From: Meghimatium bilineatum
Taxonomy: Eukaryota; Mollusca; Gastropoda; Stylommatophora; Philomycidae
Direction of reading: 5' to 3'
NCBI GenBank assembly: GCA_034231615.1
Contig: CM067317.1
Coordinates: 47,311,376-47,375,375 of the forward strand
DNA length: 64,000 nt
The notes beneath the pieces were generated by a model. That model saw only the letters and a program-made list of their open reading frames with translations, was not told where the DNA came from and made no database searches. Below, piece after piece: positions 1 to 37,400 of this stretch. Position 1 is the stretch's first letter; each line of letters opens with the position of its first letter. The position numbers and the translations under genes are program-made.

Positions 1-559
1 TAATCGTATAGAGTATAGGCCTACTATATATATTAATTACAAATAAACAATAACAAACGACTTGAACTTGCCAGCCCATGTGTATTTACCACATCTGTTA
101 CACTTCACTCTGCTACACATTGTGAACTATTAGTTCTTCTGTTGCTAACAGAACATACTAAGCTCCTTTTCGTATCTTTCGCAAGCTTTTGGCAGACACT
201 AGAACATACAACGGATGCCAATTGCCAATGAGAACGACTATTTGAAACTTACATCCGTTTTAGTTTCACTGTGTATTCTATTGTGCATGCGTAGTACGCG
301 TTTCTATGGCAATACATCAAATTCCGCACATCATATCATCACAACCGCCACGCTTACACCTTCAAGGTCGTAGGATTAATTATCAAGCCCATAGACCACA
401 TGCACTTATAGCATATATAGAAATTCACCAGTTATTTGCAAAACCACAGTCTCTATTCTTTTATGGTAAAAAAATATGTGACGTAACAAAATTTGGTGTT
501 CGTCCATCACAAGTGATGATAACCATTTGCTGCGGCCTTTATCACTTCTCTCTCTCTCT
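1..559. other. Unassigned AT-rich sequence
   Basis: No recognisable exon, transposon terminus or tandem repeat was seen here. Short open frames exist but none resembles a known family. A pyrimidine run (CTCTCTCTCT) at about 546-560 marks the approach to the LINE fragment that follows. Confidence 0.4.
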
Positions 560-766
560 TTTCTCTACGTGAAGTGTCCTTTGCAGAACGTTGTCCTCAT
601 TGCCATTCTGTAAGCCTCACGGTTTTGTGCCCAGCATCTTCTCAGAAGGTCTTCGATGTAATGTGTCCATCATAGTCTTGGTCTGCCTCTTGTTCTCTCA
701 CTCTCTGAACTTTCCTTCCATGATTGATCTTTCCAAACCATTGTGTCTTCTTATTTGTCCGAAATA
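560..766 (-). mobile_element. LINE (type D) C-terminal fragment, downstream half
   Basis: Read on the minus strand this encodes a typical LINE reverse-transcriptase C-terminus (YFGQIRRHNGLERSIMEGK-like), with stops and frameshifts further on. It is the 3' half of a LINE whose upstream half lies at 7549-8240. The break falls at the sequence CCGAAATA (plus strand), which is repeated at the other side of the intervening block. Dead copy. Confidence 0.75.
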
Positions 767-942
767 CAGTGGGGTAGCGAGGCGTGGGCGGAGGTGCGGA
801 CCGCCCCGGGCGGCATCATCGGGAGGGCGGCAAATTTATTTTCGTCCAGTCTTTCACAATTACTGACATATTTTTTTTCATGTCACAAGGGCGGAAAATT
901 ATGATTCTGTCCCGGGCCCCATTGACCCACGCTACGCTACTG
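767..942 (+). mobile_element. hAT-type MITE, left copy
   Basis: About 176 bp with ends CAGTGGGGTAGCG and an inverted CAGTAGCGTAGCG. The interior contains the GC-rich stretch GACCGCCCCGGGCGGCATCA, shared with the copy at 7374-7548. It has no coding capacity. The left flank CCGAAATA is not repeated at its own right end (TGTACAAG) but is repeated at the right end of the other copy. Confidence 0.75.
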
Positions 943-1156
943 TGTACAAGTCTATGCATTTCTGCGAACCAGTCGATTTTAGTTCTTGATTCTTGATTAG
1001 AAATTGGCTTCACAGCATGCGGAACATTCCCATAAGTGATCCGCCCTGCTCCAGCAGACATCCCAGTGTATGTAGACTCAGAGTCCCGGTCAGATGTTGA
1101 TTGTGTGATCTTCGTTACTTTCCAAAAAATTTACTTTTCCTTCCCTCACCTCTGGG
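943..1156 (-). mobile_element. LINE type B 3' end fragment
   Basis: From about 978 onward it matches the 3' part of the RNase H LINE at 19177-20090, including the CTTGATTCTTGATTAGAAA end (a TCAAGAA-type tail on the minus strand) and the frame leading to a histidine/cysteine-bearing tail. It is interrupted at 1157 by the hAT terminus. The first 30 bp (943-977) are not assigned. Confidence 0.6.
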
Positions 1157-2485
1157 CAGCGGCGTGCAAAGGGTTATTGCAGCCTGGTGCGATGAATATT
1201 TTGACCCCCCACCCCCACCTGCCTGAAATTGATTTTAATAATTCCGAGTAAAATTTTACAAGTTTATTATTATTATCGATTTTATCCACATTTAACAAAG
1301 ATAAAAATAAATGTTAAAATGTAAATTTAAAATTACAAATTCACTTTACGAGCTTTTTGACTAGCGAAGTTATTAATGACTGTGTCGAAGCTCACATCAT
1401 TGACCAGTTGTTCGATTGACATAATTGCGAGGCTGTTTAATCTCAAGTTGCTCATAGTTGACCTGCGATAGTTTTTGATTAATTTGAGTTTGGAGAAACT
1501 TCTTTCACGTGCAGCTATACTAACTCCTAAAGTTAGGAACATACACAGTAAGATGACAATGTTGGGTACTGAATGGGAAAGCTGATGTTTCTGAATGAAG
1601 ACAAGTAATTCCATAGGTCCTTGGTCCTTTAAGTTCGAGACCAAAGATGCTGCGACAAAATTCATTAGTCACTTTCTCTCGAGTAAAAATTCATCCTTAT
1701 CGATGTCATCATAAAGGAGCGTTGTGAAGATCAATGTCGACTCGATCGTCTAACAGTTGCTTTGGAGAAAGAAAGCCAAAATTGTCAGCAACTTCATGCA
1801 TATGTGCAATTCTTGTTGAACTCTCCGGATTCACGCTGCCAATGGAAACGCATATTTCCAACCAAAGTTCATTTCTGTAGTTAACCCGGCATCGGCGGCT
1901 TCTTCTCCAGGCATCTTCTTTTTACGACGTTTTCGCAGCTGTGGCTCCGTAGGGATTCCAAGTTCAGAACACACCGACTGCGCATAGCTCAAACTCGTAT
2001 CGGTTACTCTTTCCCTCGAAGTTTTGAGAAATTCATTCAAAGCTTTCATTTTTGCTGCACAATCCTGAACGCTCAAGCTCTTCTTCTGCATATATACCTG
2101 CGTGTCATTTATTTCCATTAAAACTGGAGCCAAGAACAGAAACCTAGATACGTCAAGAACGTGAATGACTGCATCGCCACCAGCAAGCTGTCAGCCGCGG
2201 ATCTCGTTTCCGAATTTCGGTTCTCTCAGTTAAAATTTCAAGTGTTTCCAGAATCTTCAGAAAGTGGCTTTTAACCATTTTGACCACTTCGCTTCTCCCT
2301 TCCAGCGTATTTCGAGTAATCGTTTGAGACTCATTCCAGTAGTTTTCATCAGCACTTCACAACGGTGAGTGGAATTGGAGCAGAAGCGTGCCTAAGAAGG
2401 TCACATAGTTTATTTCTTCTCGTGCCGCATGGATTCTAGCTAGGTTTAAACTATGGTTAGAACTGGGCTTTTGGATTTATATCGC
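1157..2485 (-). pseudogene. hAT transposase remnant (ZMYM1-like group)
   Basis: Two minus-strand stretches belong to a hAT transposase. At 1333-1665 is the C-terminal dimerisation domain, with the family signature around VPNIVILLCMFLTLGVSIAA, RSFSKLKLIKNYRRSTMS and a final ARKVNL. At 1831-2133 is an upstream piece (VLMEINDTQVYMQKKSLSVQ, then a basic KRRKKK run). Degraded coding continues to about 2400, including TTGMSLKRLLEIRWKG. The element's 3' terminus is probably CAGCGGCGTGCAAAGGG at 1157. Stops and frameshifts separate the pieces, and the N-terminal zinc finger and catalytic core are missing or unrecognisable. Such proteins cut and paste hAT elements, but this copy cannot do so. Its end resembles the CAGTGGCG ends of the MITEs that bound the larger block. 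Confidence 0.75.
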
Positions 2486-2489
2486 AAAT

Positions 2490-3490
2490 CCGTTTCTAAA
2501 CTCCCGAATGTTCCCCTTTCATCACAACAGTGCTATCGAACCCTTGATTGTTAAGCTGTACAGGTTGTGTGCGCAGTCGGAAGATGATACTCTGGTCTTT
2601 TCTTCCCAGGAGGTTGATGTTATCTTTAGGATTTGGGCTGGTCATATATTTATAGATTTCCCTCCCAGTGTTTCCCATAGCCCATCTGTTCATCCAATTT
2701 TCTTTATTCACAGATTTCAGCATCATTTTAACTGTGTGCATGGTTGTTTATGTATATGGCTGTTCTTGTTGAGCTCCCATCTTTGCTAGTCTGTCTGCCT
2801 TGTCATTGCCATGTGTATTTGAGTGGCCAGATATCCACTGCTTAACAATGTAAGTAGCTGGTTGGCAAGGTGATATATTTCCACCAGCTCAGGCTTAGAA
2901 TGTCCATCACATTCTAGTGCTTGAAGAGCGAACATAGAATCTGTGGAAATAACAATGTTTTGAACTTTTGATGGAAAGGCATCAAATATGGTCTTCAGGT
3001 GGTACAATGCAACTTCTAGTGCTGTTATTTCGGCTTCATAGTTAGAACATATCTCCCCACATGCATCAAACAGCTCATCAGATGTTTTGTCTGGATATTC
3101 TATATAGACACCATAACCTGCTTTGATGGTGGCTTTGAAAACAGACCCATCAGTATAGACATGAATCCATTGTTCTGGGTAGGTGTTTATTGTTTTCTGT
3201 GTTGCTTTCATAAGACTTACTGGGTCAGAACTTTTCGGTTCATTATTTCTTAATTGTGTCTTGATTTTCGGCAATTTAAAACCTGCATGTGGTGATAAAC
3301 ATTTTTCTACTCTTTGCAGTTCTTGTCTCTTGTCTGGGAGGTGATAGCTGCCTTTTATTTCATCGACATGGCTCAGGACTGACTATTGTTTTATTCTGTG
3401 TTTTTGTTGCCAGTTTTCTACAAGTTGTTTCTACAAATGTAGAACCCCTTGAGATGTGGAGAGATATGGCTTCAATGGAGGCTTATGAAA
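2490..3490 (-). mobile_element. LINE type C fragment with RNase H domain
   Basis: Minus-strand coding contains an RNase H domain: VYTDGSV (first Asp), an EAEITALEVAL segment (Glu), ISTDSMFALQ (second Asp). Upstream (to about 3490) is the linker from reverse transcriptase; downstream (2496-2741) is the tail with IIFRLRTQPVQLN. Frameshifts and a stop near 2786 break it. 5' truncated. Confidence 0.8.
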
Positions 3491-3679
3491 AGCAAAAAAA
3501 TTAACAAAGATCATCCAAATAAACAAGCTAGTTTTATTAAGATGCTGCATTATCCATTTTTACTTGGGGGCTTTGAATGATAGTTTAAACAAGAAAATAT
3601 GATCAGCCTTTTGATATAAATGTTGAAAATGTTTTGTGTATTGTAATTTGTAGGTTTTCTTGTTTACACATCATAACAC

Positions 3680-3765
3680 CCTAGTTTTAGTGATAGTTCG
3701 TCTTGTCTAAGTGGACCATTCTAAAAACATGTGTTTTACGTAAGTACATTTTTTAGATAAATTTA
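3680..3765 (+). repeat. Copy of a 77-bp mini-element
   Basis: About 75 bp (CCTAGTTTTAGTGATAGT ... GTGTTTTACGTAAGTACA) matching the small insertion at 26390-26466, which there has a clean 14-bp target duplication. Here the flanks are not obviously duplicated. No coding potential. Confidence 0.6.
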
Positions 3766-3837
3766 AACAAGATTATATGTGAAAGTAGATATGCTTTCAA
3801 AATAGGCAAAAAATTGTCAAATATTTCGTTTTTTACA

Positions 3838-3962
3838 TTCGTTCTCGAAATCTATTGGTAGAATATAGTCTAGAGAACGGAATGCATGTGTCATGGTCTA
3901 GAGCCTTGTTGAGATATCTGCACCATTCGGCATGTCATATTCACCTTAATCATGAGCCAGAT
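3838..3962 (-). repeat. SINE-like repeat fragment (GAAGAAG-tail family)
   Basis: The stretch containing AGAGAACGGAATGCATG, ATATCTGCACCATTCGGC and ATGTCATATTCACC is a diverged partial copy of the repeat seen in full at 11143-11420. Only the 3' half is present before the satellite begins. Confidence 0.5.
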
Positions 3963-3966
3963 GTTT

Positions 3967-4484
3967 AACATGGCATCCCTGTGAAAGAGATAGAAACCCT
4001 GTGTAAGAGATGGCAACCCTATGAAAGAGATGACAACCATGTGAAAGAGATGGCAGCCGTGTGAAATAGATAGAAACCCTGTGAAAGAGATAGAAACCCC
4101 GTGAAAGAGATGGCAACCCTGTGAAAGAGATAGAAATCCTGTGAAAGAGATAGAAACCCTGTGAAAGATATGGCAACCTTATGAAAGAGATAGAAACCCC
4201 GTGAAGGAGATGGCAACCCTGTGAAAGAGATAGAAACCCTGTGAAAGAGATAGAAACCCCGTGAAAGAGATGATAACCCTGTGAAAGAGATTGCAACAAT
4301 CTGAAAGAGATGGCAACAATCTGAAAGAGATGGCAGTCATGTGAAAGAGATGGCAACCTTATGAAAGAGATAGAAACCCCGTGAAAGAGATGGAAACCCT
4401 GTGAAAGAGATAGAAACCTCGTGAAAGATATAGAAACCCCGTGAAAGAGATAGAAACCCTGTGGAAGAGATAGAAACCTCGTAA
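3967..4484. repeat. 20-bp satellite array
   Basis: About 26 tandem units of GTGAAAGAGATAGAAACCCT, with two main variants (TAGAAACC and TGGCAACC). The period is 20 bp, three units per 60 bases. The open minus-strand frames across it are by-products of the repeat. It abuts the 3' side of a LINE coding region at 4485, and two units of the same repeat lie at 5667-5704. Confidence 0.9.
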
Positions 4485-5810
4485 AGATGATATTAGTTTT
4501 GGGCACTGCAGTAGTAGGTGTTCGACAGTCTCTTCTTGTGCGTTGCAGTGTCTGCAATTTGATTCGTGTAATGGATTTATTCTACTCAGGTGTTTATTAA
4601 CGGAGGCGTGGCCTGTTCTTAGTTGGAATGCGAGACTCTGGTTTGCACGCTCGAGTTGTTTCAGATGATCCATTGGGTCGGGTTTCTGTTGGTGTTCATA
4701 TAGTGAGCGTCCAGTCTTTGAGCTGGACCACTGTTGTAACAATTCTTGTCTGTAGTTGTTTTTTAGGATTTGTTTGCATATTTGTAGGGAGATTTTTGGG
4801 GAAAACTGGGGGGCGGCAGAACCTCTCTTAGCTAATTTATCAGCCATTTCGTTTCCAAGGACTCCGGTATGACCAGGTATCCATTCGAGGGTGACTTCTG
4901 CACCATATGATGTGGACAGCTGGTCAATTTGTCTGTTGATATTGCAACCAGGGGGTGTTTTTTTGGTCTCCAAGGCTTGGAGTGCTGATTTTGAGTCAGA
5001 GAAGATGACTATGTCTTCAGGTGGAATAGTTCCATTCTCAAAGTCCACAACAATTCGATTCAGAGCTTTCTCAATTGCTATTATCTCTGCTGTGTAGTTA
5101 GAGCAGATATCTCCGCATGGGCCAAACAATCTTGGGTAGTCTTCTGGGTCTGTGTTCGGGTATTTTATCACAGCCCCATATCCAGCATTTTTGGTAGCAT
5201 TTTATGCAGATCCATCTGTGTATACGTGGATTATTTCTGGTGGGTATGTATGGATTGTTTCTAGGGCAATAGTTTTCAGGAATGGAGTTACAGTGTTCTT
5301 ATCTGCCGAGGGGTCAGAGAGTTCAGTCCTTATGGTATGGGTTACTGCTTGCCTTCAGGGTAGCTCAATGTCTATCAATTCCTTTTGCTCTCTATTTGTT
5401 GGCAGATGGTGTTTTATGCTTGCTTGTCTTGCGCTATTGAGGAACGATGTTTTGAGTATTCTGTGTTTGTCCGGCCACTTTTCTATCATTTTTCTATTTT
5501 CTACTGTGATGTCCATTCTCATGTATCTTTCAAAGGTCTCTACTACCACTCGTTCTCTTCTTAAGTGCAATGGTTCTGTGTCTGTGTTGATCTCACATGC
5601 AGCAGTTGGGTGATTTTCATGGCACCGCATATAAATCGCAGTGCGTTATTTTGGACATTGTCCAAAACCTCGTGAAAGAGATAGAAACGTCGTGAACGAG
5701 ATAGAAGATGAAGATCCGTTGCGGTCAACGCTTGAAAATTAGACTTGAAATAGCCTAGGCTGCAATGCCAGATTAAATACCATATGGGAGAGCAGAATAA
5801 GTACATCAGT
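4485..5810 (-). mobile_element. LINE type C fragment (RT C-terminus and RNase H) invaded by satellite units
   Basis: Minus-strand coding runs from about 5810 (SPIWYLIWHCS, then LDNVQNNALRFICGA) through an RNase H domain: CSNYTAEIIAIEKAL (Glu), IFSDSKSALQAL (Asp), EWIPGHTGVLGNEMADKLAK (His/Asp). It continues to a Cys-rich tail, CRHCNAQEETVEHLLLQCPKL, which ends in the satellite. The first Asp region is broken by a stop near 5205. Two satellite units interrupt it at 5667-5704 with LINE coding on both sides. Confidence 0.8.
5667..5704. repeat. Two units of the 20-bp satellite inside a LINE
   Basis: CCTCGTGAAAGAGATAGAAA and CGTCGTGAACGAGATAGAAG are two units of the array at 3967-4484, in the same orientation, separated from it by about 1.2 kb of LINE coding sequence. 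Confidence 0.8.
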
Positions 5811-5849
5811 GAAGATACACCTGGATGCCATGTGTACCATTATATGTCA

Positions 5850-6330
5850 TGTCGTGGTGTGAGACTCGGAATTGGGCCACTCGCCCAATCGGTGAACGAC
5901 ACCTCGGCTAAGAAGACGAAAGATCCATGGTCCAACTCTTCTCGCGGATGAGAAAAGGTTCAGCATCCGATGGGCATAGGCACAGAACGTTGAATTACTC
6001 GAGGCAGGTTCACAGACGGCGGAACACCTCGCGCGAGATAGACGTGAACGACAATCGTCCTTTCGAAGAGTCACTACGCACCCACGTGACTGTCGACAGA
6101 TAGGCAGGCTGTCACGGGCTAGGGTAGCCAACTACCCGAATTAAAGGCATGACAAAAACGGATGTGTTGGGCCTCGGATGTCTAGACCACAAAGTGAGCC
6201 AATCGAGGTACAAATAACACAGTTCAACTGTGGAACTTGTGGCTCAACGTACTTCGCTCTCGCCGGCGGAAATCTCACGAGATATGTGTTGTGGTTATAA
6301 GAGAATGAACGCAGAAGAAGAAGAATAGGC
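5850..6330 (+). repeat. Dispersed repeat R2 with GAAGAAGAA tail
   Basis: About 480 bp matching the repeat at 12850-13505 (shared GATGAGAAAAGGTTCAG, GACAGATAGG.AGG.TGTCAC, CCGAATTAAAGGCAT and the CCGGYGGAWATCWCAMGA block). It ends GAATGAACGCAGAAGAAGAA, the same tail as the SINE-like family. It is GC-richer than its surroundings and may be the 3' end of a longer LINE. Confidence 0.6.
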
Positions 6331-6489
6331 CATGCATACCATATGTACCATTATAGAACTATAAATCTAAAAAGAAATACATTTTCTATTTGTATGGGTA
6401 CACAGATTTCTAGTTAAGATGTTGAGAAGAATATACTATGTAATATGTCACTGTCATTAGAAGCGCTGAAGAGAGTTTCATGGCTAGGC

Positions 6490-6850
6490 CTATATTAATC
6501 AATCAATAAACCGTAACCCTTCACGGTTGTAGGGGTGCCACATTGGTTGCTTCATCACACAGAGTCCTCCAGCGAAGTATATCCTTAGCGATGCGGATGA
6601 GTGTGAAAATATATTGTCCTGTCCATTCCTTGATGTTGTCTGTCCATGCCTTTATTTTTCCTTCTCTGTTTCTTCCCCCTTCGACAGTTCCCTGTAGTTT
6701 TGTTTTTGACAAGAAATCATGTCTGCATACATGTCCGAACCATGCTAGTTTTCGTCGTTTCACTATGGAAAGCAATGGTTCCCGAACTCCTGCACACATC
6801 TCTACTTTATTTCTTACGTACACATTGGTCTTATGTTCCCTATAGGAAAT
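6490..6850 (-). mobile_element. LINE type D C-terminal fragment
   Basis: Minus-strand coding has the typical end of this LINE group: RKLAWFGHVCRHD, then LQGTVEGGRNREGKIKAWTD and WRTLCDEATNVAPLQP just before the stop. The 3' end carries ATTGATTGATT at about 6496-6506. The same 3' sequence recurs at 26830-27010. Confidence 0.75.
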
Positions 6851-7373
6851 TCGCAGAATTCGTCTGTAGCATTTGTACTAGAAAGCCTGTAATCTTCTGT
6901 ATAGGGACCTACCACTGACTCTAAAATATTTGTGCTTAGTATGGCAATAAATAAACAGGATAGTGGAAAAATTAGAGGCAACAGTGATGTGGTTATATAG
7001 AGGAAAGTGTTGACAAGACATAGAGGATTTATTTAATTGTAGTTGGATTATCCCATATGTATTCCATCCTTCTCAACAAAGCGATACGCGCCAGCCGAGA
7101 GTATCATTCATAGCACGTAATTATGCAGCTCTTTTGGAGAGGCGTGCCTCTATCAACCAGCGGACAAAGTCCAATTAGGCTATATCAGGACACAAGCTAT
7201 AATTCATTGGGATTTCCGCAATCTTTGTTAGCAAATTCTTCCCCGTGTCATTGAGTGATGGGAGTGCCGAGGGGGTTGCGGTCGCACCGGGCATCAAAAT
7301 GCCCATCAAAATAATGAAAACATTGAAATAGGATTTAAGTGCCTTTGCCGTGCCAAAGTTGATGCCCCGCAAC
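6851..7373. other. Unassigned stretch inside the composite block
   Basis: It contains a short type E LINE-like scrap (GGCAACAGTGATGTGGTTATATAGA, about 6978-7003). Otherwise no family was recognised. The 8 bp before the right MITE (CCCGCAAC) do not match the flank after it. Confidence 0.4.
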
Positions 7374-7548
7374 CAGTGGCGTAGCGAGAGAGGGGCGGAA
7401 GTGCGGACCGCCCCGGGCGGCATCATCGGGAGGATGGCAAATTTATTTTCGTCCAGGCTTTCACAATTACTGCCATATTTTTTTAATGTCACAAGGGTGG
7501 AAAATTATTATTCCGCCCCGGTCGCCATTGTCCCACACTGCGCCACTG
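7374..7548 (+). mobile_element. hAT-type MITE, right copy
   Basis: About 175 bp, same orientation as the copy at 767-942, with ends CAGTGGCGTAGCG and an inverted CAGTGGCGCAGTG. It shares the GACCGCCCCGGGCGGCATCA core and the AAATTTATTTTCGTCCAG segment. Its right flank CCGAAATA equals the left flank of the other copy. Confidence 0.8.
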
Positions 7549-8240
7549 CCGAAATATGTAGCCTACAGTTTGCTTTTTTGACAGTTTTGAGGAGCTATTC
7601 TTCTGCTATTTTCTGATATTTGTCCACATCTGCGATAGTTTTTATTTTCTGTACGTGATATTCTTGGGACCTTTCTATAGCATTTCAATTCAAATGCCGA
7701 TAATTTCTTTTCATTGTCGATGTCATTGCCCACGTCTCACAACCGTATATTGCCACTGGAAAGATATAGCTTCTTAGTAGTTGTAACTTTGTATTACTGT
7801 TTGCTCCTTGCCATAGATTTTTCATCTGTCATATTTTTTGTAGTGTCGTTGCTAATCTATTTATCTCTGCCGGACAATCTCCTGTGGTGTTGATGGTTGA
7901 TTCTAGATATTTAAAGTTGTTTACATTTTCTAGTTTCTCTTTGTCAATGACTATTTTAGGTGAAATTTCATCTCTGCTTACATGCATTCTTTTGTCCTTT
8001 TTGCATTGAGGAAAAGTTTTTGTATCTTGCTATGATGTTTAACTGACATAATCATTTGTTCTAAGCCTGTGGTGCTCCTTGAAATTATTGTGGTACCATT
8101 TGCATATCTAATTTATGGGATTTCGTGTCCTACGTTATTAAGGGATTGAAACTGTTTATAACGTTGGTGTTCTCGTGCATTTCTCATGATGTTTTCTGCA
8201 TAAATATTGCATAAAATGCCTTTATCACAGTTACAAAATC
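7549..8240 (-). mobile_element. LINE (type D) reverse-transcriptase fragment, upstream half
   Basis: The minus strand encodes degraded RT C-terminal sequence: a YLxSTINTTGDCP-like segment near 7890, YGCETWAM near 7735, KCYRK and finally LLKTVKK and TYFG at the break. This half continues into 560-766. Multiple stops and frameshifts. Confidence 0.7.
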
Positions 8241-8249
8241 CCTCATTGC

Positions 8250-8960
8250 AAACAGTAACGGAAAACATGCAGAATTTGACAGTTTGACTTAATGAAAATG
8301 ATCAACTACTGAAACAAGTGCAGAAATTTAAATATCTAGGGATCATTTTTACAGCCATTGGAAAAACGAACAGATAATTTTAATGGACAGATAATGGACA
8401 AATAATGGACAGATAGCCCGGGATAAGAATTCAAAAAGTCAACTACGTAAATTATGAACTTACACAAATGTTGAAACACAAATCTATCCCGATGGAAACA
8501 AAAAGGCAAATCATAAATTCAATATTCATCCCAACATTCTGTTTTCAATGTCAGACATGGACACTAACTAAAGAACAAGAGAGAAAGCTTACTTCGTGTG
8601 AAATGAAATGTCTAAGAAAAGCAGCAAACAGAACAAGACGAGACCATGTGAGAAATGAGGAGATTACAAGAACTGTTGAAACAACATCAGTGGTCAAATA
8701 TATTGAAAAACAGAATTGAAATGGTTCGGCCATCTAATGAGAATGAACCCTTCTTGGCCACCTGCAAGAGCATAGGCGTGCACCATGAAAATGGAAACAG
8801 TAAGATACAGAGGAAGACAACGAGGAAAGTGAATTGAAGGATTTACCAACATTCTGACACGGCACAATATTACTGCATATCAAGCGACCAGACGTACAAT
8901 AGCACGAAAACCAATCATCATTCAATCCTGCGACGCCTCACGCCATAAGCAGAGAAAAGA
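8250..8960 (+). mobile_element. LINE RT C-terminal fragment, plus strand
   Basis: Coding at 8468-8719 reads PMETKRQIINSIFIPTFCFQ, QTWTLTKEQERKLTSCEMKC and VRNEEITRTVETTSVVKYIE. The stretch before it (AAATATCTAGGGATC, about 8329) is the YLG segment of the RT. Related copies are at 22745-23220 and 42080-42270. Frameshift near 8700. Confidence 0.75.
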
Positions 8961-8964
8961 CAGA

Positions 8965-9015
8965 CATGAGATAGATAGAGAGATAGATAGACAGAGATAG
9001 AAAGATAGAGACTTT
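8965..9015. repeat. GATA microsatellite
   Basis: An imperfect (GATA)n run directly after the LINE fragment, perhaps grown from its 3' tail; the related LINE at 22745-23220 also ends in AATAGATAGATG. Confidence 0.8.
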
Positions 9016-24158: not shown

Positions 24159-24970
24159 TTTTTACTGTGAAGGTCGTAACCAAAAACTAGACAACGCAAA
24201 GTATTTAAAACTATTATTATAAATAAAGTTTTACAGTAACACAATTATTGTAAAACAGTTTTTCATATTCTTTGTGCGAAAAAAATATACACAAAATATT
24301 TTAAAATTTATGTTTGTCAAACACTATTTTATATCTTAACCACCATTTTATGAAATCAATGCATCATGCAGTAGTATCATTGTTAGAACAACTGTTGCGT
24401 TAAATTACAATGAAGCTGCTGGCACATTGATTTTGCGTTCAAGTGATTGTAAATATTGACTTTAATAACCAAACCCTCTCGGCATAATTAAAAGATAATG
24501 CGTCTCTTTTATAAGACCGAGAGAGACATATCATACCACTTAAGCCTTCGTCTTGGCATCAGTCATTCACTAAATAACAGTTGGTTAGCAGAATTGGTCA
24601 TCTGCTAACAACAAAGTAGAAGTGATTGTGAATAATCAATAATACTGAATTTGTTTGTAATGTAACGCAGTAGGCCTACTCACTACTGTGTCCAGGCCTA
24701 TCATTTAAATCACAGTAAACGAACGGATTTTCGAATGGAATCTAGATAACAGATAATAATATAAATATGCGTTATTGAATAACGCGCATAACAAGATCAT
24801 TCGCAATAGCCTAATTCCTAATTGCAAAGAGTGTCACTTCAAAAGTTTCATAATTTAGGCTACACAGCCTAAATTCTTAGTAAGACGTCATTAATTTTGG
24901 AGAAAAAAATATTTAATTTTGATGAATTTCATACTTAATTCAAGATATTAATATTATAGTAGAGATAATA
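24159..24970. promoter_or_regulatory. Intergenic region between divergent NDUFA5 and SLC2A13
   Basis: 812 bp separates the two start codons. It includes both 5' UTRs and presumably both promoters. It is AT-rich with no CpG cluster and contains no recognised transposon, unlike almost every other stretch of similar length here. A TATAAAT at 24760-24766 and an adjacent palindrome are candidate elements for SLC2A13. Transcription starts cannot be located from sequence. Confidence 0.5.
24769..24785. promoter_or_regulatory. Palindrome GCGTTAT-TGA-ATAACGC
   Basis: A perfect 7-bp inverted repeat with a 3-nt centre, flanked by TAT/ATA symmetry. It lies 186 bp upstream of the SLC2A13 ATG, just after a TATAAAT. 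It could bind a dimeric factor; no factor is assigned. Confidence 0.3.
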
Positions 24971-25481
24971 ATGGCGGACTTAACAGAGGATGCAAAACTT
25001 ATTGGATCACCTACAATCGGGATGACTTTTCAAACCGTTAATAGGGCATCACAAACAAAAGCATCTTTTCATACTGATTCTGGTGAGAGTGTGACGACAG
25101 TCTACAGTGGTTCAAAAAAATCAGTTACAAAACAAGACCGGCATACTTCAAATAAATCATACCATCTTTGGCTTCTAACATCTTTTGCTGCAATTGGAGG
25201 CTTTTTATTCGGATATGACACTGGTGTAGTCTCTGGGGCAATGTTGTTTATTAAGGATGAGTTCTTATTGTCATCAGTGTGGCAGGAAATAATAATTAGT
25301 GTTACTATTGGAACTGCTTTCTTATCTGCATTGTTAGGAGGAGTTCTCAATGATATATTTGGGCGGAAGGCTGTTACAATTGTTTCAAGTTTCATGTTTA
25401 CTTTAGGTGCAGTGATACTTGGTAGTGCTCAGAATGTGGCAATGTTGGTTAGCGGCCGCTTGATTATTGGCATAGGAATAG
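24971..25481 (+). CDS. SLC2A13: SLC2A13 exon 1
   Basis: Encodes residues 1-170 and the first base of Gly171; donor GTGTGTATG. The start ATAATGGCG has a G at +4 and is preceded by AT-rich leader sequence. The hydrophilic N-terminus (1-62) is followed by helix 1 (about 65-85) and helices 2-4. The open frame runs past the donor, but that extension (ending YKHLEVG) has no family match. Confidence 0.95.
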
Positions 25482-28400
25482 GTGTGTATGTCATTTGTGT
25501 GTCTGTTATTATTTGTGTAGGCCTATTGCTTGAATTTGACATATTTTATTGCTATAAACATTTAGAAGTAGGATAGACATAAGTGCTGTCCTTAAGATGC
25601 GTCAACAGTTATTGTGGAGGGCTTGCAAGGGGGGAGGGAAGTGGTAAAAAATTGTTGATGTAATTTACGGATAGCCCCTTAGGGGAACATGTCTGTACTC
25701 TGAAATATGGTTTCTTACTGCAGACCTTCAAAATAGAAATAATGTTTTAGTTGTAGGCACTATATTATTGCAGAATTGTATGTGTTTCATACACATATCT
25801 TATCATCATAACTAAATCTGTTCAATAAAAGCTAGAAAATCTGGCTATTTTTACAGGATAATAACTTTTCAAAGCCTTTTTTCTTTGAAGATCATTATAT
25901 TTCCAGTAATTTTATCATGTTTTTGAGAGGCATCGTCATCAAGTGTCATGTCTGCAACAGAGGTTGACTGTAACAGACTCCCAATATCCTGTGTCTCTTG
26001 CCCTGGTGGTGCAAACTGACTATCATGTGTCTATCCATGTTGTATTGTTTTCCTCCCACTTGTACTCTGTCTACCTCTTGATCATCTCCCTTCAACTCAA
26101 CCTCAATTCTAATTGGGGGTGGGGAGAGGTAGAGTTAGAGAAATTTACCATTTAAAAATTGATTTCTAATGCTAAATATCATGTTTAATTTTCCTAAGGG
26201 AGTATTTGAACCCCTCAAATACACACACACACACACCCCCCCCCCCCCCACCCACTAACCTTATCTACAGGTTTATATCGCCAACAAAGAAACCTGCACT
26301 GCCAAAGACGGGTGCATTGGACATTGATGCAAATAAAATGGTGACGCAAGACATTTCTATTCTCTAACTACATCCTGCTGGAAATCTAGATACCCCTAAT
26401 TTTAATTATAGTCCATCATGTCTAAGTGGAACATTTAAAAAAACCTGTGTTTTACGTAAGTACAATTGCTGGAAATCTAGTGAGACCATTGTCTTGCTAC
26501 CAGAGAGAACCAGCGGAAGTTTGAAAATGAATGCCGAAGAAGAAGATGAAATTTTCAAAATAATAAAGAAGAAAGCACAGACCTTCTAATAAACCTGTCA
26601 ACAATCAAAGAATGTACTGTACCAAGTAGTTATGATAATAATGAAACTCATAAATAGCCAAATTTTTTATCTCACGTGTTCATATTGAGGGGCAAAGAAA
26701 AAATTAACCAAAAAAACTTTATTGGGGTTTTTTCCTGTGTGTGTGTGCTAAATGCAGATGTTTTTATTGATTGCGGAAATAAATTGTTAAAAATACAAAT
26801 TTGTGAAAAAATAAGTTGACAGTAGTGCATAACCCGTCAGGGTCGTAGGGGTGTCACATTGGGACATTTGTTGCAGAAACATCTCCACACATCTCTATCC
26901 TCTACCATACTGATGAGTTTAAAAGCTTCACACTCTGTCCAGTCCTTGATATTATCCATCCATGTCTTCTTCTGACCACATTGTCTTCTTCCATCCTCCA
27001 CAGTGCCTTGAAAAACATCTTTTTACCAGTAAGTCAAATTGGTATGAACATATAAATCAGTAATAGGTTACAAAAGGCCTTTATCAAGAATACAACTTGA
27101 CACATGATGTGTAAGAAACGGCACTATCCATATTCACATAGTAATTGCTAGATTGGAGGGAAATTTTGTGTTACTTAGATCTTCTCTATGATGGGCTAGC
27201 AACATCATGCACAGCTGCAGCAAAATATGTTTGATCCATGCAAAAATATAGCCATGAGTTGTTTGATCCATACGGACATATAGCCATGAGTACATGCCTT
27301 GCAAAAACTATTATTCATGGCACAGCGATAGGTAGGCTACAAGAAAAGTGGGCAAACAGAAGAGGAGGTTGAAGATGACAAATGAATTGACAGAATGTTC
27401 TTTTACCACCTCCAAGAGGTTGGCTCTTAATTATGAAGGTTGGAAAGGGATTGCAAAAACTATGTCAAGATTTACCAAACAACTACCAAGGTTTCATATC
27501 TGAAGAGAATAAATGTTAGTAACACTAGCACCTGCCATGCGCTGCATAAGAGATGACTAAGGATGCTCATTTCAGGGTTGGCAATACATGACCTCTAGGG
27601 TTACACATGACCTCTGCTATAATGAAGTCTGGACTGTTGACAGGAAATCAAATTTTTTATCTAGTGAATTCCTTGTCTTAGCAAGAGTCATTACAAAGTC
27701 CTCTCCTACAATAAGTGAGACGGCTGTAAAACTGTATAACAATAGTACTTATGTAGAACACAAGTAAATAGTACATTTAAGAAACAAAATACATGAAGAA
27801 TATGTTTCAAACATCATTAAAAAACGTAGATGGAAATACCTGGATCACATTTTCAGACTAGATGAAAACATAATAAATCAACAAGCTCTTAATGTGGATA
27901 CATGAGGGTAAAAGAAAATGAGGAAGGCTTAAAGCATCCATAAAAAAACAGCATACTTAAAGATGGGGAAATAATAGGCTGCAAGACCATATAAGAACTA
28001 AAACTGCAGAAACCGGACTGCAACACATGGAGAATAAAAACCTCTACCCTATGCCACCTGTGGCACGAAAGGAACAAACTAACTAAGAACATACATTTGA
28101 TAAGCTTTACAATCAACACACAAACTATATGGTATTGGTATGAAAAAATAAAGTAACAGTATACAAGATATTTTCAACGTTTCCACCTTAAGGTCTTTTT
28201 CAAGAAAGAACAAGACAAAATGTGAACAAACAGTAAAGACAGTAAATATAATGGCACTATCACAAAAGTATTAGGCAACAGACATTGACTAGCAGAGATG
28301 TCCAAGGTAACAATAACGCATGTATACACAAATATTGTCATATGAACACATATAAAAAAAATATAACTGGAATGAGAACAGAATAAAATAGTGACACCTG

Positions 28401-31400
28401 AAAACAACATGAACTACAATACAACAAAGGTCTCGCCCGCTGAAATATAAATAAATGAGTGATCAGAATTAAGACCAAATGGCTTAAGTGTACCATTTAA
28501 GCTTCCTCTAGGATTTTGAAGGTTTCCTTTCTCTTACAAGCACATTAGATACAACTGTCATCTGGGACTTGCATAAGTTATGGAACATTTCCCCATCAAG
28601 AAAAGAATGCCAGAGACAAACAATCTGGAGTTGAAAGTAAAAGTTCACCTCAAGACATAAGTAATAAGTGACTCCTTCAGGACCCTATCATATTCATCAA
28701 GCACAAAATTCTGTGTACTGTTGTGCATTATCTGTTTCTCTTCGATTTCAGGATTGGCTTCAATGACGGTACCTGTGTACATTGCAGAGAGTGCCCCTGC
28801 TAATATGCGTGGTCGTTTAGTTACCATAAATAATTTGTTCATCACTGGAGGTCAGTTTGCAGCCAGCTTAATAGATGGAGGCTTCAGCTATGTTAAACCT
28901 GGTGGATGGAGGTAGGATGGTTATTAATGATGCCATGGCTTGTTGTTTTGTTTATTTCAATCCCAAGGAATTACAAACAATGAAGCTCTTGTTTCCAATA
29001 TGCAATTGGGGGGATTTATCCAGAACTTTCTTCCATACTCATAAGACTCCCAACTTTCAGCAGTATGCAAAGCTTTGAAAAGAAGCTCTTACCCAGAACA
29101 GTTCTATGTGTGTATCATCAAATCCATAATCCATCTTGAGGGCTTGAGTTGGGCACCCTCAAGCCTTTTGGACTCAATTCCGACCACTCTTTTGCTTAGT
29201 TCTTGGTCGGATTGGTCTTTGTCTTTATTCTATTTGTGCCATCATTTACGTCATCTTTTTGTTCTACTGGTTCCACCTATATTATCGTCTTTGTGTACTT
29301 CCTGTCCATATCCTTCTGGTATATCACAACCGTATTTCACTCGAACACGCTTGTTGTGGTGTAGTCATTTCTACTCGTCGTATTTTTATGTTATGTGCGT
29401 ATCTTGACAAAGGCCTTTTTGGTTTGAAACATTTTTTATGTCCTGTGTATTGTCATTTGTATGATTATATTCTGTGTTTTGTTGTATATATTAATTCACA
29501 TAGGCATCTGACAGTGATAGTGTGTCAGTCGTTATCCAGTAGAACGTCATTACCTGTCTTCCACGTGGGGTTTTCACGGGAGGAAAATCTCATTACCAGG
29601 TATATTCGCATGTTATCTACTGATAGTTTACTATTGCATAATGGTTGGACTGATAGATCAACAGTGAGACCTACAGACCTTCAACATGCTGTGAGGGTCT
29701 GAAATGGAAACAAAGAATAAAAGCAATATGGCTTTGTTATGCATGTTGTACAGGCTGTAAAGTCTTCCTACACTTTGTAAGTAGAACAAATTTGAAAAAC
29801 AATATTACATGAAAAAAAAAGTCATTAATATAGTTACAATAGTTATTGCTATGGTCCAGCGCTGTTCTGTGAAAGCTGGAAAGTACCAATGGAATTGTCA
29901 TTATAACAGGTTCAAAGAAATGACTGCACATCTCTTCATATTGTCAAATACCTTCTGCAACATGTCTGTTGTTATTTCTTGAATACTAATTCTTTCTTCT
30001 GTTGATAACAACAGGATCTGTGTTATCAACCTGTGAGTTCTGTAACTCTTGTGGTGAAAGTTGCTAAAATTATGAAGAAGAGGCTGAGATCATCAAGACA
30101 GACATTGAGTTAATACACCCACCAACAGTTTTATCATATGGAACAAAATCCATCAGATATGTCATTTTTACAGACTCTAAGTCAGTTTTGGAAGAACTTA
30201 AACATACCCCATATCTTCTTCTTCTGCGATCAGTTTCCTATGCTCATAAGTCTATACAGGAAGGTGGGCCGCCTCCATGAATTCAGTCGTCAGCAGGAGG
30301 TCCTCACGGTTGCCCCACAGCTTCACCTTCAGATCTGTCTCTTGAGGCCATATTTTGGTTCTCACGTCATCAAAGAGTGGGCATGTCTGCAGAATATGTT
30401 CTGGAGTCTGGGGACCCTTTTGACATATACCCCATATGAAAATCAAGATATTCTCCACATAGCAAGAACAGTGCACAGTCTTATCTCTGCATATCCAGCC
30501 AATGTGACAGTGCAATGGATACATGGAAATGAAGTAGCAGACAGACTTGCAAAAAAGAGGTGTTTCAAAACAACAAAAGCAAAGACCTTGTAGTATGGGA
30601 ACAATCAAACAGATTCTCAGAAACAACACCAAGGAAATCTGACTGAACAGATGAGCATATGGGCTGACCGGTCAACATTTATTTAGTGAAATGATACGGC
30701 CAAAGAGCAATGAGACAACATAAATAAACTCTGCAAGAGAAACCAATCCCTTTTCTTTCAGTTTTGAACAGGACATGCAAGGATCAATCGCCATTTAAAC
30801 TGTATCAAACCCCAGCAACTACCCACTTGTAGGCACTGCTCTCATCCCAATGATACAGTGAAACGCCTCCTTATTGAATGCCCTTACCTTTCAACTGCCT
30901 GAAAAAAACTTCCACAGACACACTTAACAGTCACTAACTTACTGTATGGATCACTAAGTCAACTTCAGAAGACCTGCACTTTTTAGGAATGATATTGTGC
31001 TGACAAGAGTAGCATTACTCATCAGCATTTGGATATTGACAATGACAACAACCTGCTGCTGGTGGAGAACAGAAGCCTTCAACGCCCTGCTGAGGGTAAT
31101 ATAGAGCCTTGGTCTACCATATACTCCGATTGCTGACGAGGTTACCAAATGTCAGAGATTGATAGAGCCTGCTTTGCGCACCTGATGGTGAACCAAACTC
31201 TAACCCTATCCCTAGTGCTAACCAATACAACCCTCCTAAATAAATATCTCCCTTTCCCAGTCTTCTTCTTGATTAGGAACTGACTTCACAGCATGCGGGG
31301 CATTCCTATAAGTGCTCCGTCCTCTGTTCCAGCAGCCATCCTAGTGTATGTAGACTCAGAGTCCCGGTCAGGTGTTGATTGTGTGATTTTTGGAACTTTG

Positions 31401-34400
31401 CAAAAAATTTACTTTTCCTTCCCTCACTTCTAGATACTCCCATTTCTGACTTTCTCTGTATGTGAACATTCCCAGTCTTTTCCCACCCATACAACCTTCC
31501 TAAATAAATATCTCCACTTCCACCCACTGATGGATAATTATAGCTAAGTGAAATAATCACTGGAAAAAAAAAGAAGAACAAAGATTTGCCTATGCCGTGT
31601 CATTTATTTTGTTTCACTTTCAGCAAAAGATGTCTTCCTGTCTGCTAGTATTGAACAAATGTTACACATGCATCATATATATTGTAGGAATAAGAATTTC
31701 TGTTACTAGTTGAAACTCTAAAGTTATAAAATATACATCTCACTCAGTCAGTCAGTTCCTCTTTTGCCAAGTTTGGCACATAGGACGGATGTCATAGTTC
31801 TCCATGCCTGTCGGTCAGTTTCTAGGGATTGCAGGTCTTGTGCATTTATGCCTGTTGATTTTAATTCATTCATAAATGTTTTTCTGAGAGTTGTTTTTGG
31901 TCTTCCCTGTTTTATTTTTCCGTCTGGTGTCCACATTAAGACTTGTCGTGGAATTCTGTCTTCATTCATTCTAAATATGTGGCCGATGTATGTCCAGCAG
32001 CGTTTTCTGATGATGTTCATCACATATTCTTGTTTTGTCTCCTCTCTTAGTATGTCATTTGATTTGAAGTCTTTCCAATTAGTATTTGTGATTTTTCTGA
32101 GGCATCTATTCTCGAAGGCAACTAATTTCTTATCCATTATTGTGGTAGATTTCCAACTTTCACATCCGTATGTCAATGATGGAATCACACTTGCATTGAA
32201 TAGAAAATATACATCTGGTCGTATTGAAACATGAAGTCATGAACTTTGTGGGTAAAAAAACATGGTTGCATGTTTTCATATGATACCTGTATATAATGAT
32301 TTCATCTGTATAATGTATAAAAATGGTGGAACATGTCTCCTGAATATACATATAAACCACATCTGAGTGGAAGGCTTCTTGTCAAAGCATTGCAGACCAA
32401 TGAGAGTTGAAGTTTTCTGGCTGTGGAAAAATGCTCTAGGGAAACACACATACCCCTCTCTCCCCCCCCCCCCCCACATTGAACATATGGTTAATATATA
32501 TCTATTGTCTTTTCTCTACTTTTGATGTGAGGCCTCACAGGATTGAATGACTATAGATTTTCGGGCTATGGCATGATTGGTCTCTTGTTGTGCAGTAATA
32601 CTGTGCCGTGTCAGAATGTTGGTAAACTTCCTTCAATCCACTTTCTTCTTAGTCTTCTTCTGTATATTGCTTTTTCCATTTTCTTGTTATATACTCTTGC
32701 TGCTGGTTAATAAGGGTTCATTCTACTTAGGTAGCCAAACTATGCCAGTCTCTGTTTTTCAATATGTTTGATATACATAATTAAAAATATAAATTAGGAT
32801 ACATAACAGTTTTGCAAGTAGCAAAAAACGAATGTACATTTTTACCAAAAACTCCTTATCAAGATAGAGACACAAGATTTTATTCCATTGGGTCTGTGTA
32901 TGTGTTCGTGTCGCTATCTTTATAATAACTGTCGCTACCTAGATAATTACATTTTGGTTGAAATGTTGATTCGTTCCATTGTGTTTTTTTGCTGCTTGTA
33001 AAACTTGTTATTTAACATGTTTTATGGTGTTTATTATATATGTTTATCATATGGTAGGCACTTTTACTCTAGTCCCGCATCATTGAATATGAGAAACAAG
33101 AGTTTCATAGCTCGTAAATGCTAGGGATCTACGTAGATAAATACATTAAATGCACATTTTTGCCAATGTTTTGTTGGGATTCAAGAGGGAGCAAAGAATA
33201 GTAACACTGTGACCAGCCATGAATGTTGTAAGAAACAACTAAGAAGATCTGTGCATGAAGTTGTTAGCCTATCCTAGAGAAGATCTAAATAACCCAAAAT
33301 TTTCCTCTATCTAGCGATTATTATGTGAATGGGGATAATGCCATTTCTCACTTGTCATGTGTTGTCTTGATAAAGACCTTTTGGTGAAAACATCGATTTT
33401 TATGTGTTATTATGTGTATTACCAGAGATTATTAACTACATTCTATTAATTGGCAGAAGTTTGAAAGAAAATAGACAAAGAAATGTGTATTTTTAGAATG
33501 TATCTAATGTATGTAAACATTTTTCCTCATAGATACATGCTGGGACTTGCTGGTATACCAGCCATGGTTCAGTTTTGTGGGTTTTTCTTCTTACCCGAGA
33601 GTCCCCGTTGGCTGATGAAGAAAGGCAGAGAAACAGATGCTAAAAATGTTTTGATCAACTTAAGAGGCATTCATTCAGTAGATACTGAAATGAAAGAAAT
33701 ACAGGATGCTATTAATGCAGATCTTGTAAACAATGGTAAATATTGTTGCTGGCTTAGCAATAAAATGCTGCAATTTCATGCCAAAATATGCAAAAATATT
33801 GCTTTCCTGTCATTCTAGGAGGTACAGTCATTGCTAATAAATGTGGAATGTATAGTACAACAACTTTCAGTATGAGAATGAAAATGTAGGAAGTTACGGA
33901 GGCCTTAAAATGGGTCTCGGAAACAATGACAGTTAGTGTTGTTATTGTGTCAGACTCTCAATCCATGATCCACAATATTCAGAATGGATGGCTACATCAT
34001 GAATTGATGGATTACATTGGAGTTTCACACTTGAAGAGATTTGAAAGGAGTTTAAAATGCGAAGATATTAGAGAGGGATATTGATGGATAGGACTAGGGA
34101 AATATACAGCGAACTTGCCATGTGAACTGTCAGCATGCATACACTTCACCATCTGTTGAAAAATACAGAGCTCTTATGGGTGTGCCAAGAAAAGACCAGT
34201 CTTTTCAGATAATCACTAATGCTAGTAAAAATGGCATAATGAAACATAGACAACAAATTCACATTGTTTGGCTCAAATCACATGAGAAATCATTGGTTCA
34301 TGATCATCATCTGTTATCAGTTCTTTATTAGAGAATCTTAATCCTGTCAAGTCTTTATCCTTTAGCGTGCTAAAGTCTAAAACATTTCCAAGCAATGCCC

Positions 34401-37400
34401 ACAGCTGTTGTCAAAAGTTTGCGACCATTTCTATGAATATATTTGGCTATGTGGGAATCGCATGTCTGTTTTCAAATCAGATATAAAAATCAAATCAGAT
34501 ATAGTAGCACGTTAGGTTTCGTTATGAAATGACATGATGGAACAGGTATCGTAATGTATTTACAGGATCGCAGACAACACTAGGTCTAACTTTAAAGCTC
34601 AAGTTTTTCGGTAAGGTAAGTTACTTTTACATGTTTTTATGTATTTCCCCAGCGATATTTTGTTAGTTTGGTTATGAAACAAACATATTTACAATAGACT
34701 TAGTTGTCAAATAAAGACAAGTAATTTTTTAATATTTATTTACTGATTTAAATTCTTTTTACCCCATTTCTCATCTTTACAACCTTTTCACATTTCTTGT
34801 ATCACACATGCACAAGAAAAACTTACACCCATATTTGCAGTATGTAATTCTTTATTTAAATGAAAAAATTATTTTAAAATCTCTATAAGCAAAAAAGTTA
34901 TTGTTTTTTCCAAACATCCACCCAAAAATACACCTAAAAAATGTCACAGTATTAGAGATGCGATGGCATAGAAAGAGTGATGTTTGAGGAGGTGATAGAA
35001 AGCAGTAGAGGCAAATGTTGACCAAGATCTCGCTGGACAAGAGATATCCAGGAATGCATGCAAAATGCAGGGCAATTTGCCAGAGACCGTAGAGATTTCA
35101 TGAGATCTATTAGGAAGACCATGTTCTGGAAAGAATACATCACATAAGAGAGAGAGAGAGAGGAAGAGAGAGAGACCCACACGCATGAACGCATGCACAC
35201 ACACACACACAAATAATATATATATATATATACATATTTATATATTGGAAGGAAAGTATATTTTCAAAAAAGTAAAAAAAAACTGCCAGAAAAATATAAA
35301 AATGGCAAAACTAAATTTTATGGCACATAGCCTTTAAAAATGGCAAAATGTTTGATATTTGGTCATAAAATGGCCAATATGGCAATCACCAATTGATGCT
35401 TTACATTTGCCTTATCTTCTTCCTCCAACCACAACTGTTCCCTTAGATAGTTTTGGAAAGGAAATCATGCATCAACACATTGCCAAATCACAAAAATGTA
35501 CAATGTTTCACAACTGCCAAGGGATGTTCCGGTTAACCTTCAAAAGCATTTATTTTGTTTCTCACATATAGATTGGATTTATGTTCAGTATAATTATAAA
35601 TATGACAAAAACTCTGACCGATGTACAAGTTACAAAGCACAGTCAAGTTTATGCAAGAGATAAACTTCAGATATAGACATATTCCAAGTGAAGAAAAGAA
35701 AGAGGAAATAAATATTGTCATACTAGAGTGAAAACAAACAAACAAACATGTACCCATATATCAGTGTCATTTGTTTGTTTATATTGCTTATTGTGTTTAT
35801 ATTGCTTATTGTGTTTATATTGCTTATTGTGTTTATATGTTTATATTGCTTATTGTGTTTATATGTTTATATTGCTTATTGTGTTTATAAGTTTATATTG
35901 CTTATTGTGTTTATATGTTTATATTGCTTATTGTGCTTATATGTTTATATTGCTTATTGTGTTTATGTTTATATTGCTTATTGTGTTTATATGTTTATAT
36001 TGCTTATTGTGTTTATATGTTTATATTGCTTATTGTGTTTAAATTGCTTATTGTGCTTATATGTTTATATTGCTTATTGTGCTTATATGTTTATATTGCT
36101 TATTGTGTTTATATGTTTATATTGCTTATTGTGTTTATATGTTTATATTGCTTATTGTGTTTATATGTTTATATTGCTTATTGTGTTTATATTGAATCAA
36201 TCAATCAATCAAGTGCCATGCTGAATGGCGTAGGCGATAATGTTTCTCCACGACTCTCTATCTCTTGTGTTGTCAATAATCTCCGTTGGTGAGCTTCTAC
36301 CGTGCCACAATACTAGTCCATCTAGTAACTTTTCTCTTTGTCATCCCCTATCTCTTCTCCTCTTGATATATATTGACCATTAAAAAAAGCAGTAGTCATA
36401 CAGGTTTGAGCTCTCAAAAAGGAGTTGAAAAAACTTACTGGTGGTCATGATAACTGCAATGTCTTTGGATCATGCAGCCCATAGAAGCTGCTGAGGCCAT
36501 AAAGTGAAACAGAAAATAATAATACTGATCTGTCTTGCATGTTATAAGAATTGACACCAGGAAGATCCCCACCACAGAGGATGGAAGTTTGGTTTGGTAA
36601 TATTAAAGATTGGACATCATTAAGAGTCTTCACAAGTGAACAACTAACTGAGAATATAGAGGCATGACAGAAATTTGATGTTGTTGTTTCTAAAGTAGCA
36701 CTACTGTAACCTTGATGGGTTATGAGTTTAATGAAATGAAAATAATGTAAAAAACAGAGTTAAACTGTCATATATCAGTTCTAGTTGAAGCATAATGCAT
36801 TTTTTTTTCAACTTGAACTGATATATGGCAATTGAACTCTTGTTGTTTTACATTATTTTCATTTCATTAAACTTTTTTCATCAGTACTTTTTCTTCTGCA
36901 CTTTTTGTCAGAGTCCTGCAGATTAGCAGGATGTGGTCTGAAGAATGGAATGCATGGTGTCACAGTTTACAACTTTGCTGCAATATCTACACTATTTGGC
37001 CTGACACATCCAAGTTCAGCATGGCTTCCTTGTCACTTTGCCCTTATGTGGAATTAGACAGGCAACTCCCCCTAAATAACCTCCTTTCCTCCCTTATGAC
37101 ATGCATGGAAGGTAAACAGTATTGTTATTACTTGCTCCCCTTTCAGGTCGTGAAAACACAGGTGGCCATCGATATGAAGTGCTGTATTCAACGTTTATCA
37201 GGCTGTTTTTGATCAACCACTGACTAAGTGCTGTATTCAACACTTATAAGGCTGTTTCTGGTCAACCGCTGATTAAGTGTTGTATTCAACACTTATCAGG
37301 CTGTTTCTGGTCAACTGCTGATTAAGTGCTGTATTCAACACTTATCAGGCTGTTTCTGGTCAACCACTGATTAAGTGCTGTATTCAACACTTATCAGGCT

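What the first reader, a model, noticed from the sequence alone, without database searches (positions are those of the whole stretch)
759..7556. A 6.78-kb block bounded by two hAT MITEs and flanked by one 8-bp target duplication
Seen: CCGAAATA lies just outside the left end of MITE copy 1 (759-766) and just outside the right end of copy 2 (7549-7556). The inner flanks of the copies (TGTACAAG, CCCGCAAC) match nothing. Deleting 767-7556 joins two minus-strand LINE halves without a missing base: LLKTVKK...TYFG from 7549-8240 continues as QIRRHNGLERS in 560-766. Known: hAT elements make 8-bp duplications and have CAGTG-type ends. Inference: the whole block moved once using the outer ends (a macrotransposon), carrying LINE pieces, a satellite and hAT transposase debris. 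Alternatively, cargo with a second MITE recombined into one inserted MITE.
Basis: partly seen in the sequence, partly recalled or inferred. Interest (0 to 1): 0.82.

Follow-up and report, generated by a model that had tools for sequence, protein, structure and literature searches.

The report
Pair of small transposons carrying DNA
A 6.8-kb stretch of animal-like DNA sits inside an old retrotransposon and is bounded by two short look-alike transposons that share one target duplication, as if the pair once jumped together with everything between them, a behaviour known from maize.

Summary
Two direct-orientation MITEs (767-942, 7374-7548; 87.5% identical; no third copy found in the window) bound 6.78 kb. 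CCGAAATA abuts both outer ends with exactly 8 matching bases; the other five flank pairings match at 2-3 of 8. Random 8-mer pairs from this window agree at 3.4e-5. The outer sequences look like two halves of one minus-strand LINE: tested separately, they align to adjacent parts of an in-window relative. Correction: no base is missing, but about 5 surplus bases lie beside the right duplication, shifting the frame.

Best explanation: hAT-type macrotransposition. Two independently inserted MITEs used their outer ends once, carrying LINE pieces, a hAT relic and a 20-bp satellite into the LINE. Neither MITE has its own duplication; copy 1's inner end reads CAGTA where the other three read CAGTG, which may have favoured the distant end (inference).

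Not excluded: recombination or repair through an already inserted MITE, re-replication-type composite insertion, misassembly. The genome could not be searched, so empty site, donor and further copies are untested; transposition is inferred. New member of a known kind (maize Ac/Ds macrotransposons); moderate interest.

The parts
569..766 (-). Left half (C-terminal side) of the target LINE; starts YFGQIRRHNGLERS at the block edge
   Evidence: Translation of the flank; unbridged alignment to the relative at 38683 onward with two controls
759..766 (+). Target site duplication CCGAAATA, left copy
767..942 (+). MITE copy 1 (176 bp), ends CAGTGGGGTAGCG / CGCTACGCTACTG; its inner (right) end reads CAGTA on the opposite strand
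943..7373 (.). Cargo, 6431 bp of mixed repeat fragments; its two end octamers TGTACAAG and CCCGCAAC match at 3 of 8
984..1153 (-). 3' piece of a LINE with close relatives at 9381, 19175 and 31266 (weaker ones at 44082 and 21869), cut off where the hAT relic begins
   Evidence: blastn, alignment of the three close relatives
1157..2190 (-). Relic of a hAT element: end CAGCGGCGTGCAAAG at 1157, broken minus-strand transposase reading frames, Dimer_Tnp_hAT match in ORF 1333-1668; right border unknown
   Evidence: Pfam PF05699 E 5.5e-11; end found; frames. ORF 1831-2190 has no Pfam match
2786..3382 (-). LINE fragment with RNase H
   Evidence: PF00075 E 5.2e-08
3977..4478 (+). Satellite array, 20-bp unit, about 25 copies
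   Evidence: Tandem Repeats Finder
4484..5664 (-). LINE fragment with RNase H and a sub-threshold zf-RVT match, lying between the satellite array and two further satellite units (5665-5706); boundaries approximate
   Evidence: PF00075 E 4e-12 in ORF 4359-5201; satellite units on both sides
6521..6877 (-). LINE fragment related to the target LINE's C-terminal region
   Evidence: ORF, no Pfam match; tblastn relatives; aligns to the left half, 7 of 5000 shuffles as good
7275..7373 (.). Possible second degenerate MITE interrupted by copy 2 (inverted GTTGCG...GGGCATCAA)
   Evidence: Weak: 3 of 2000 single-base shuffles but 74 of 2000 random window segments reach the score
7374..7548 (+). MITE copy 2 (175 bp), ends CAGTGGCGTAGCG / CACTGCGCCACTG
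7549..7556 (+). Target site duplication CCGAAATA, right copy
7565..7993 (-). Right half of the target LINE, ending LLKTVKKANC near the block edge; about 5 surplus bases lie between it and the duplication

Best explanation
A hAT-type transposase, supplied in trans, paired the left end of MITE copy 1 with the right end of MITE copy 2, cut out the whole 6.78-kb segment and inserted it once into a LINE copy, duplicating the 8-bp target CCGAAATA (macrotransposition). The two MITEs had earlier inserted independently at the donor site, so the inner flanks are single remnants of two different older target duplications. Shown: the anatomy, the one shared 8-bp duplication, its absence at the inner ends, the end sequences. 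Supported: the LINE target. Inferred: the single-step move, the hAT transposase as agent, and that the changed fifth base of copy 1's inner end favoured use of the distant end.
For: Outer flanks match at exactly 8 of 8 with no extension, the other five pairings at 2-3 of 8; chance agreement of 8-mers 3.4e-5. The outer sequences align, separately, to adjacent parts of one in-window LINE relative. The two MITEs are the only copies found in the window and sit at the two borders in direct orientation. Inner flanks match each other at 3 of 8, as expected if two MITEs had separate histories and against a circle bearing one MITE with its own duplication. Outer ends keep CAGTG/CACTG; the inner end of copy 1 has CAGTA. 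A hAT relic with a similar end (CAGCGGCGT) lies in the cargo. Precedent: maize Ac macrotransposons and composite insertions with 8-bp duplications or footprints (passages of PMC9910405 and PMC4270019); a Ds/Ac macrotransposon moving as much as 100 kb (passage of PMC3260210).
Against: No empty site, donor site or second copy of the block was seen, since the genome was not searchable. No donor-type footprint (TGTACAAG next to CCCGCAAC) in the window. Single case. About 5 surplus bases lie beside the right duplication. The left LINE half is short: 37 of 5000 random window stretches match the relative as well, and it was not found (alone). The hAT assignment of the MITE is not tested against an autonomous relative; P elements also make 8-bp duplications (PMC1562414 passage), and CCGAAATA does not fit the Buster pattern nnnTAnnn (pattern).
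Confidence: 0.66

Rival explanations
1. Stepwise: one MITE inserted into the LINE with CCGAAATA on both sides; later a break in it was repaired from, or it recombined with, a donor locus carrying MITE-cargo-MITE (ectopic conversion, gap repair or circle integration), adding the cargo and a second MITE.
For: Gives the same anatomy, outer duplication included. The copies share exact runs up to 33 bp in which strand exchange could occur.
Against: Needs a donor with two flanking MITEs as well as a single-MITE target. A circle with one MITE predicts matching inner flanks; they match 3 of 8. 176 bp at 87.5% identity is a poor substrate for homologous recombination (general knowledge).
Confidence: 0.16
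2. Composite insertion from alternative transposition with re-replication: ends of two nearby elements were used in another geometry, replication ran past them, and the segments were fused inside the block, all flanked by one 8-bp duplication (as described in maize).
For: Composite insertions bordered by Ac and fAc termini with 8-bp duplications are reported (PMC4270019 passages); the cargo is a patchwork of unrelated repeats in which a fusion point could lie.
Against: The patchwork needs no special fusion point in a repeat-rich genome; comparing 1-9000 with the window showed only the satellite, the MITE pair and short or diverged dispersed repeats, no larger duplication.
Confidence: 0.08
3. 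Assembly error: a LINE with one MITE was wrongly joined through the MITE to another locus lying between two MITEs.
For: MITEs are repeats and could tangle short-read graphs; no reads or second assembly could be examined.
Against: The two copies differ at 21 sites plus a gap and share at most 33 exact bases, so longer k-mers or long reads would be expected to keep them apart (inference).
Confidence: 0.08
4. Two unrelated MITE insertions with a chance match of outer flanks.
For: None beyond the possibility.
Against: Chance about 2e-4 for any of six pairings; each copy then lacks its own duplication; the LINE halves would be neighbours by luck.
Confidence: 0.01

Closest known systems
Maize Ac/Ds macrotransposons (Huang and Dooner 2008: seen only as cited; passages of PMC9910405, PMC4270019 and PMC3260210 seen)
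   Same: Two hAT elements close together, outer ends used together, unrelated DNA between them, 8-bp duplication at the outer ends
   Different: Here both ends are 175/176-bp MITEs in an animal-like genome and movement is inferred from a fossil, not observed
Anopheles P-MITE chimera AgaP2-P12MITE (PMC1562414, passages seen)
   Same: Proposed origin by en bloc movement of two nearby elements in an insect; 8-bp duplications
   Different: P superfamily; the proposed product is a short chimeric MITE, not a 6.8-kb block with two whole MITEs; offered there as a suggestion
hAT MITE Mar of Drosophila (PMC3517528, passages seen)
   Same: hAT MITE with CAG-type ends (CAG(G/A)GGTAGGC) and 8-bp duplications
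   Different: A 610-bp element; the passages seen describe no composite; its duplications follow nnnTAnnn, which CCGAAATA does not
Bacterial composite transposons (recalled, no call)
   Same: Two short elements mobilise the segment between them
   Different: Insertion sequences carry their own transposase; these MITEs are too short to

Membership tests
hAT macrotransposon | Two elements of one family with plausible ends outermost | tested here: met
   Direct copies at 767-942 and 7374-7548, outer ends CAGTG.../...CACTG
hAT macrotransposon | One 8-bp duplication at outer ends, none at either inner end | tested here: met
   8 of 8 outer, 2-3 of 8 for the other five pairings
hAT macrotransposon | Target site restored by removing the block and one duplication | tested here: inconclusive
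   The two LINE halves align to adjacent parts of a relative but about 5 surplus bases remain; no empty allele available
hAT macrotransposon | Donor site or a second copy of the block elsewhere | not tested
   The genome search unanswered nine times; not seen within the 64-kb window
hAT superfamily (for the MITE) | 8-bp target duplications | tested here: met
   One duplication, shared by the pair; P elements share this feature
hAT superfamily (for the MITE) | Terminal inverted repeats similar to those of an autonomous hAT element | tested here: inconclusive
   CAGTGGCGTAGCG resembles the hAT relic end CAGCGGCGTGCAAAG: 8 of the first 9 bases agree, then the likeness fades
hAT superfamily (for the MITE) | Mobilised by a hAT transposase | not testable with these tools
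   Needs an excision assay

The most novel reading that the evidence does not exclude
The block is one member of a mobile composite family: paired MITEs in this genome repeatedly carry kilobase cargo, including a satellite array, to new sites, making transposase-less 176-bp elements a route for satellite dispersal and segmental duplication in animals.
Probability: 0.1. Interest if true: 0.72.

Novelty: new member of a known kind. Interest (0 to 1): 0.42.

Why it matters
Macrotransposition is documented for Ac/Ds in maize. A fossil with MITEs at both ends in an animal-like genome would suggest that even very short hAT elements can move kilobases of unrelated DNA, here including a satellite array. 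Since the test is structural (one shared 8-bp duplication at the outer ends of two MITEs, none at the inner ends), it could be run across whole genomes to count such events.

Tried and rejected
Two independent MITE insertions: rejected, since neither copy has its own duplication. Tandem MITE dimer later opened by other insertions: rejected in its simple form, since no spacer or duplication remnant abuts either inner end. Excised-donor footprint (TGTACAAG near CCCGCAAC) in the window: the two tighter patterns had no hit; the loosest had two (12731, 40373) that are not convincing. Second terminal repeat of the hAT relic: the pattern search gave nothing within 2 mismatches; a local match of score 26 near 2511-2557 was found without a control and not pursued. 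Claim that copy 2 sits inside another degenerate MITE: kept only as weak (74 of 2000 random segments score as well). MITE core in public DNA: 0 matches in viral contigs and 0 in genome contigs; these are virus and prokaryote collections, so this says little. LINE protein in the large protein collection: 32 candidates, none with E <= 0.001. Rfam and tRNA scans of the window: 0 and 0. Phrase search for the conserved positions of hAT ends: the phrase was in none of the 10 papers listed of 607, so that point is recalled. Literature: nine paper searches. 'macrotranspos' with 'transposase' gave 9 papers, none on an animal hAT by title and start of abstract; three searches gave 0 papers; the 15 listed of 893 were unrelated. 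Passages seen: PMC1562414, PMC9910405, PMC3260210, PMC4270019, PMC3517528; in PMC10175614, PMC9319602 and PMC2775673 the term was only in reference lists. No paper was read whole. Only open-licence PMC papers are held, so absence there is weak.
Full report
What is there. Two copies of one 175/176-bp element lie at 767-942 and 7374-7548 in the same orientation. They differ by 11 transitions, 10 transversions and one gap. Their ends are CAGTGGCGTAGCG-like: the four ends have 1 mismatch (copy 1 left), 1 (copy 1 right), 0 (copy 2 left) and 2 (copy 2 right) against that sequence; the only other places within 3 mismatches of 13 are three plus-strand sites with 3 each. No third copy was found in the 64-kb window.

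The duplication. CCGAAATA abuts copy 1 on its left and copy 2 on its right. The match is 8 of 8 and stops exactly there on both sides. The other five pairings of the four flanks match at 2-3 of 8. Two random 8-mers of this window agree at a rate of 3.4e-5 over 2,000,000 draws. The octamer occurs three times on the plus strand of the window, the two here and one at 42764; its reverse complement occurs at 3026 and 63115.

The target. On the minus strand, the right flank encodes a LINE segment that reads LLKTVKK near the block edge, and the left flank starts YFGQIRRHNGLERSIMEG; after the plain join they are in different frames. Two tests bear on whether they were one LINE. In the first, a protein of both halves that I had bridged by hand aligns over the join to a relative at 38683-39000 (31 of 106 identical, no gap; combined E 3e-12) and, more weakly, to relatives at 58223-58771 and 32203-31793; the lack of a gap there is partly built in by the bridge. 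In the second, the halves were aligned separately and unbridged: the right half aligns to the relative up to its residue 84 and the left half from about residue 89, that is, side by side with four residues between. For the left half, 1 of 5000 shuffles and 37 of 5000 random window stretches score as well; this window is rich in LINEs, so the second control is the stricter one. Results against: tblastn of the left half alone did not list this relative at E 0.01 and gave only a 28% match at 61214-61345, and a translated DNA comparison with the relative found matches in the right half only.

The surplus. The relative has 12 bases between the residues aligned to KK of LLKTVKK and its xFG motif, and so has the cargo fragment at 6521-6877 by eye (LLSIVKRRKLAWFG); the joined site has 17. 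About five surplus bases therefore lie in the right flank beside the duplication, in the odd palindrome TGTAGCCTACA. They may be an ordinary small insertion or an older excision scar; I cannot tell.

The cargo. It is a patchwork: a LINE 3' piece (984-1153) with three close and two weaker relatives in the window; a hAT relic beginning CAGCGGCGTGCAAAG at 1157, with a Dimer_Tnp_hAT match (E 5.5e-11) in a minus-strand frame and broken frames upstream; two LINE fragments with RNase H; a 20-bp satellite of about 25 units with two more units on the far side of the second RNase H fragment; and a LINE C-terminal fragment. This looks like ordinary repeat-rich genomic DNA, as a transposed segment would carry, rather than an organised element.

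Mechanism. If each MITE had inserted on its own at its present place, each should have its own duplication. Neither does. The anatomy says that the left end of copy 1 and the right end of copy 2 acted as the two ends of one insertion. Macrotransposition explains this in one step, and explains why the two inner flanks are unlike each other: each is half of an older, separate duplication left at the donor. Copy 1's inner end has CAGTA where the other three ends have CAGTG. From general knowledge of hAT ends (recalled; a phrase search did not find it) the fifth base is among the most conserved, so this end may have been weakened, favouring the distant end of copy 2; the change could also be later. 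The rival in which cargo entered an already inserted MITE by recombination or repair gives the same anatomy and is separable only with other copies or alleles.

What was not possible. The other DNA collections tried hold prokaryote and virus sequence and gave nothing. The organism was not identified; a sugar-transporter exon and the repeat types suggest an animal, perhaps an insect, which is my inference.

Comparison. Maize macrotransposons are the same kind of thing (passages in PMC9910405, PMC4270019, PMC3260210). In insects, en bloc movement of two nearby P copies was suggested for a chimeric MITE (PMC1562414 passage). The searches listed in Tried and rejected turned up no animal hAT macrotransposon, but the library is partial and the lists were seen as titles and abstract starts.

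Noticed in passing
3977-5706: A 20-bp satellite array is split by an RNase H LINE fragment; AAACCTCGT stands on both sides of the fragment, consistent with LINE insertion into the array, though the array itself repeats that motif.
   Followed up: partly
7557-7567: Perfect odd palindrome TGTAGCCTACA directly beside the right target duplication, where the LINE has about 5 surplus bases; possibly an old excision scar or a chance insertion.
   Followed up: partly
943-948 and 7557-7567: Copy 1's inner flank starts TGTACA and the LINE after the right duplication reads TGTA...CA; probably chance.
   Followed up: no
16, 6485, 24671, 25518, 60838: TAGGCCTA occurs 5 times in the window against 0.8 expected from base composition, but it is not among the 25 most over-represented 8-mers once shorter words are allowed for.
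   Followed up: partly
7275-7373: Possible second, degenerate MITE-like inverted repeat ending at copy 2; weak against random segments.
   Followed up: partly
24926-33818: Two reading frames, at 24926-25576 and 33465-33818, look like exons of a sugar transporter gene (Pfam Sugar_tr for the first; the second judged by eye).
   Followed up: no
35692-36292: Long repetitive open frames in overlapping ORFs ([15 protein letters not shown]...), probably a tandem repeat array.
   Followed up: no
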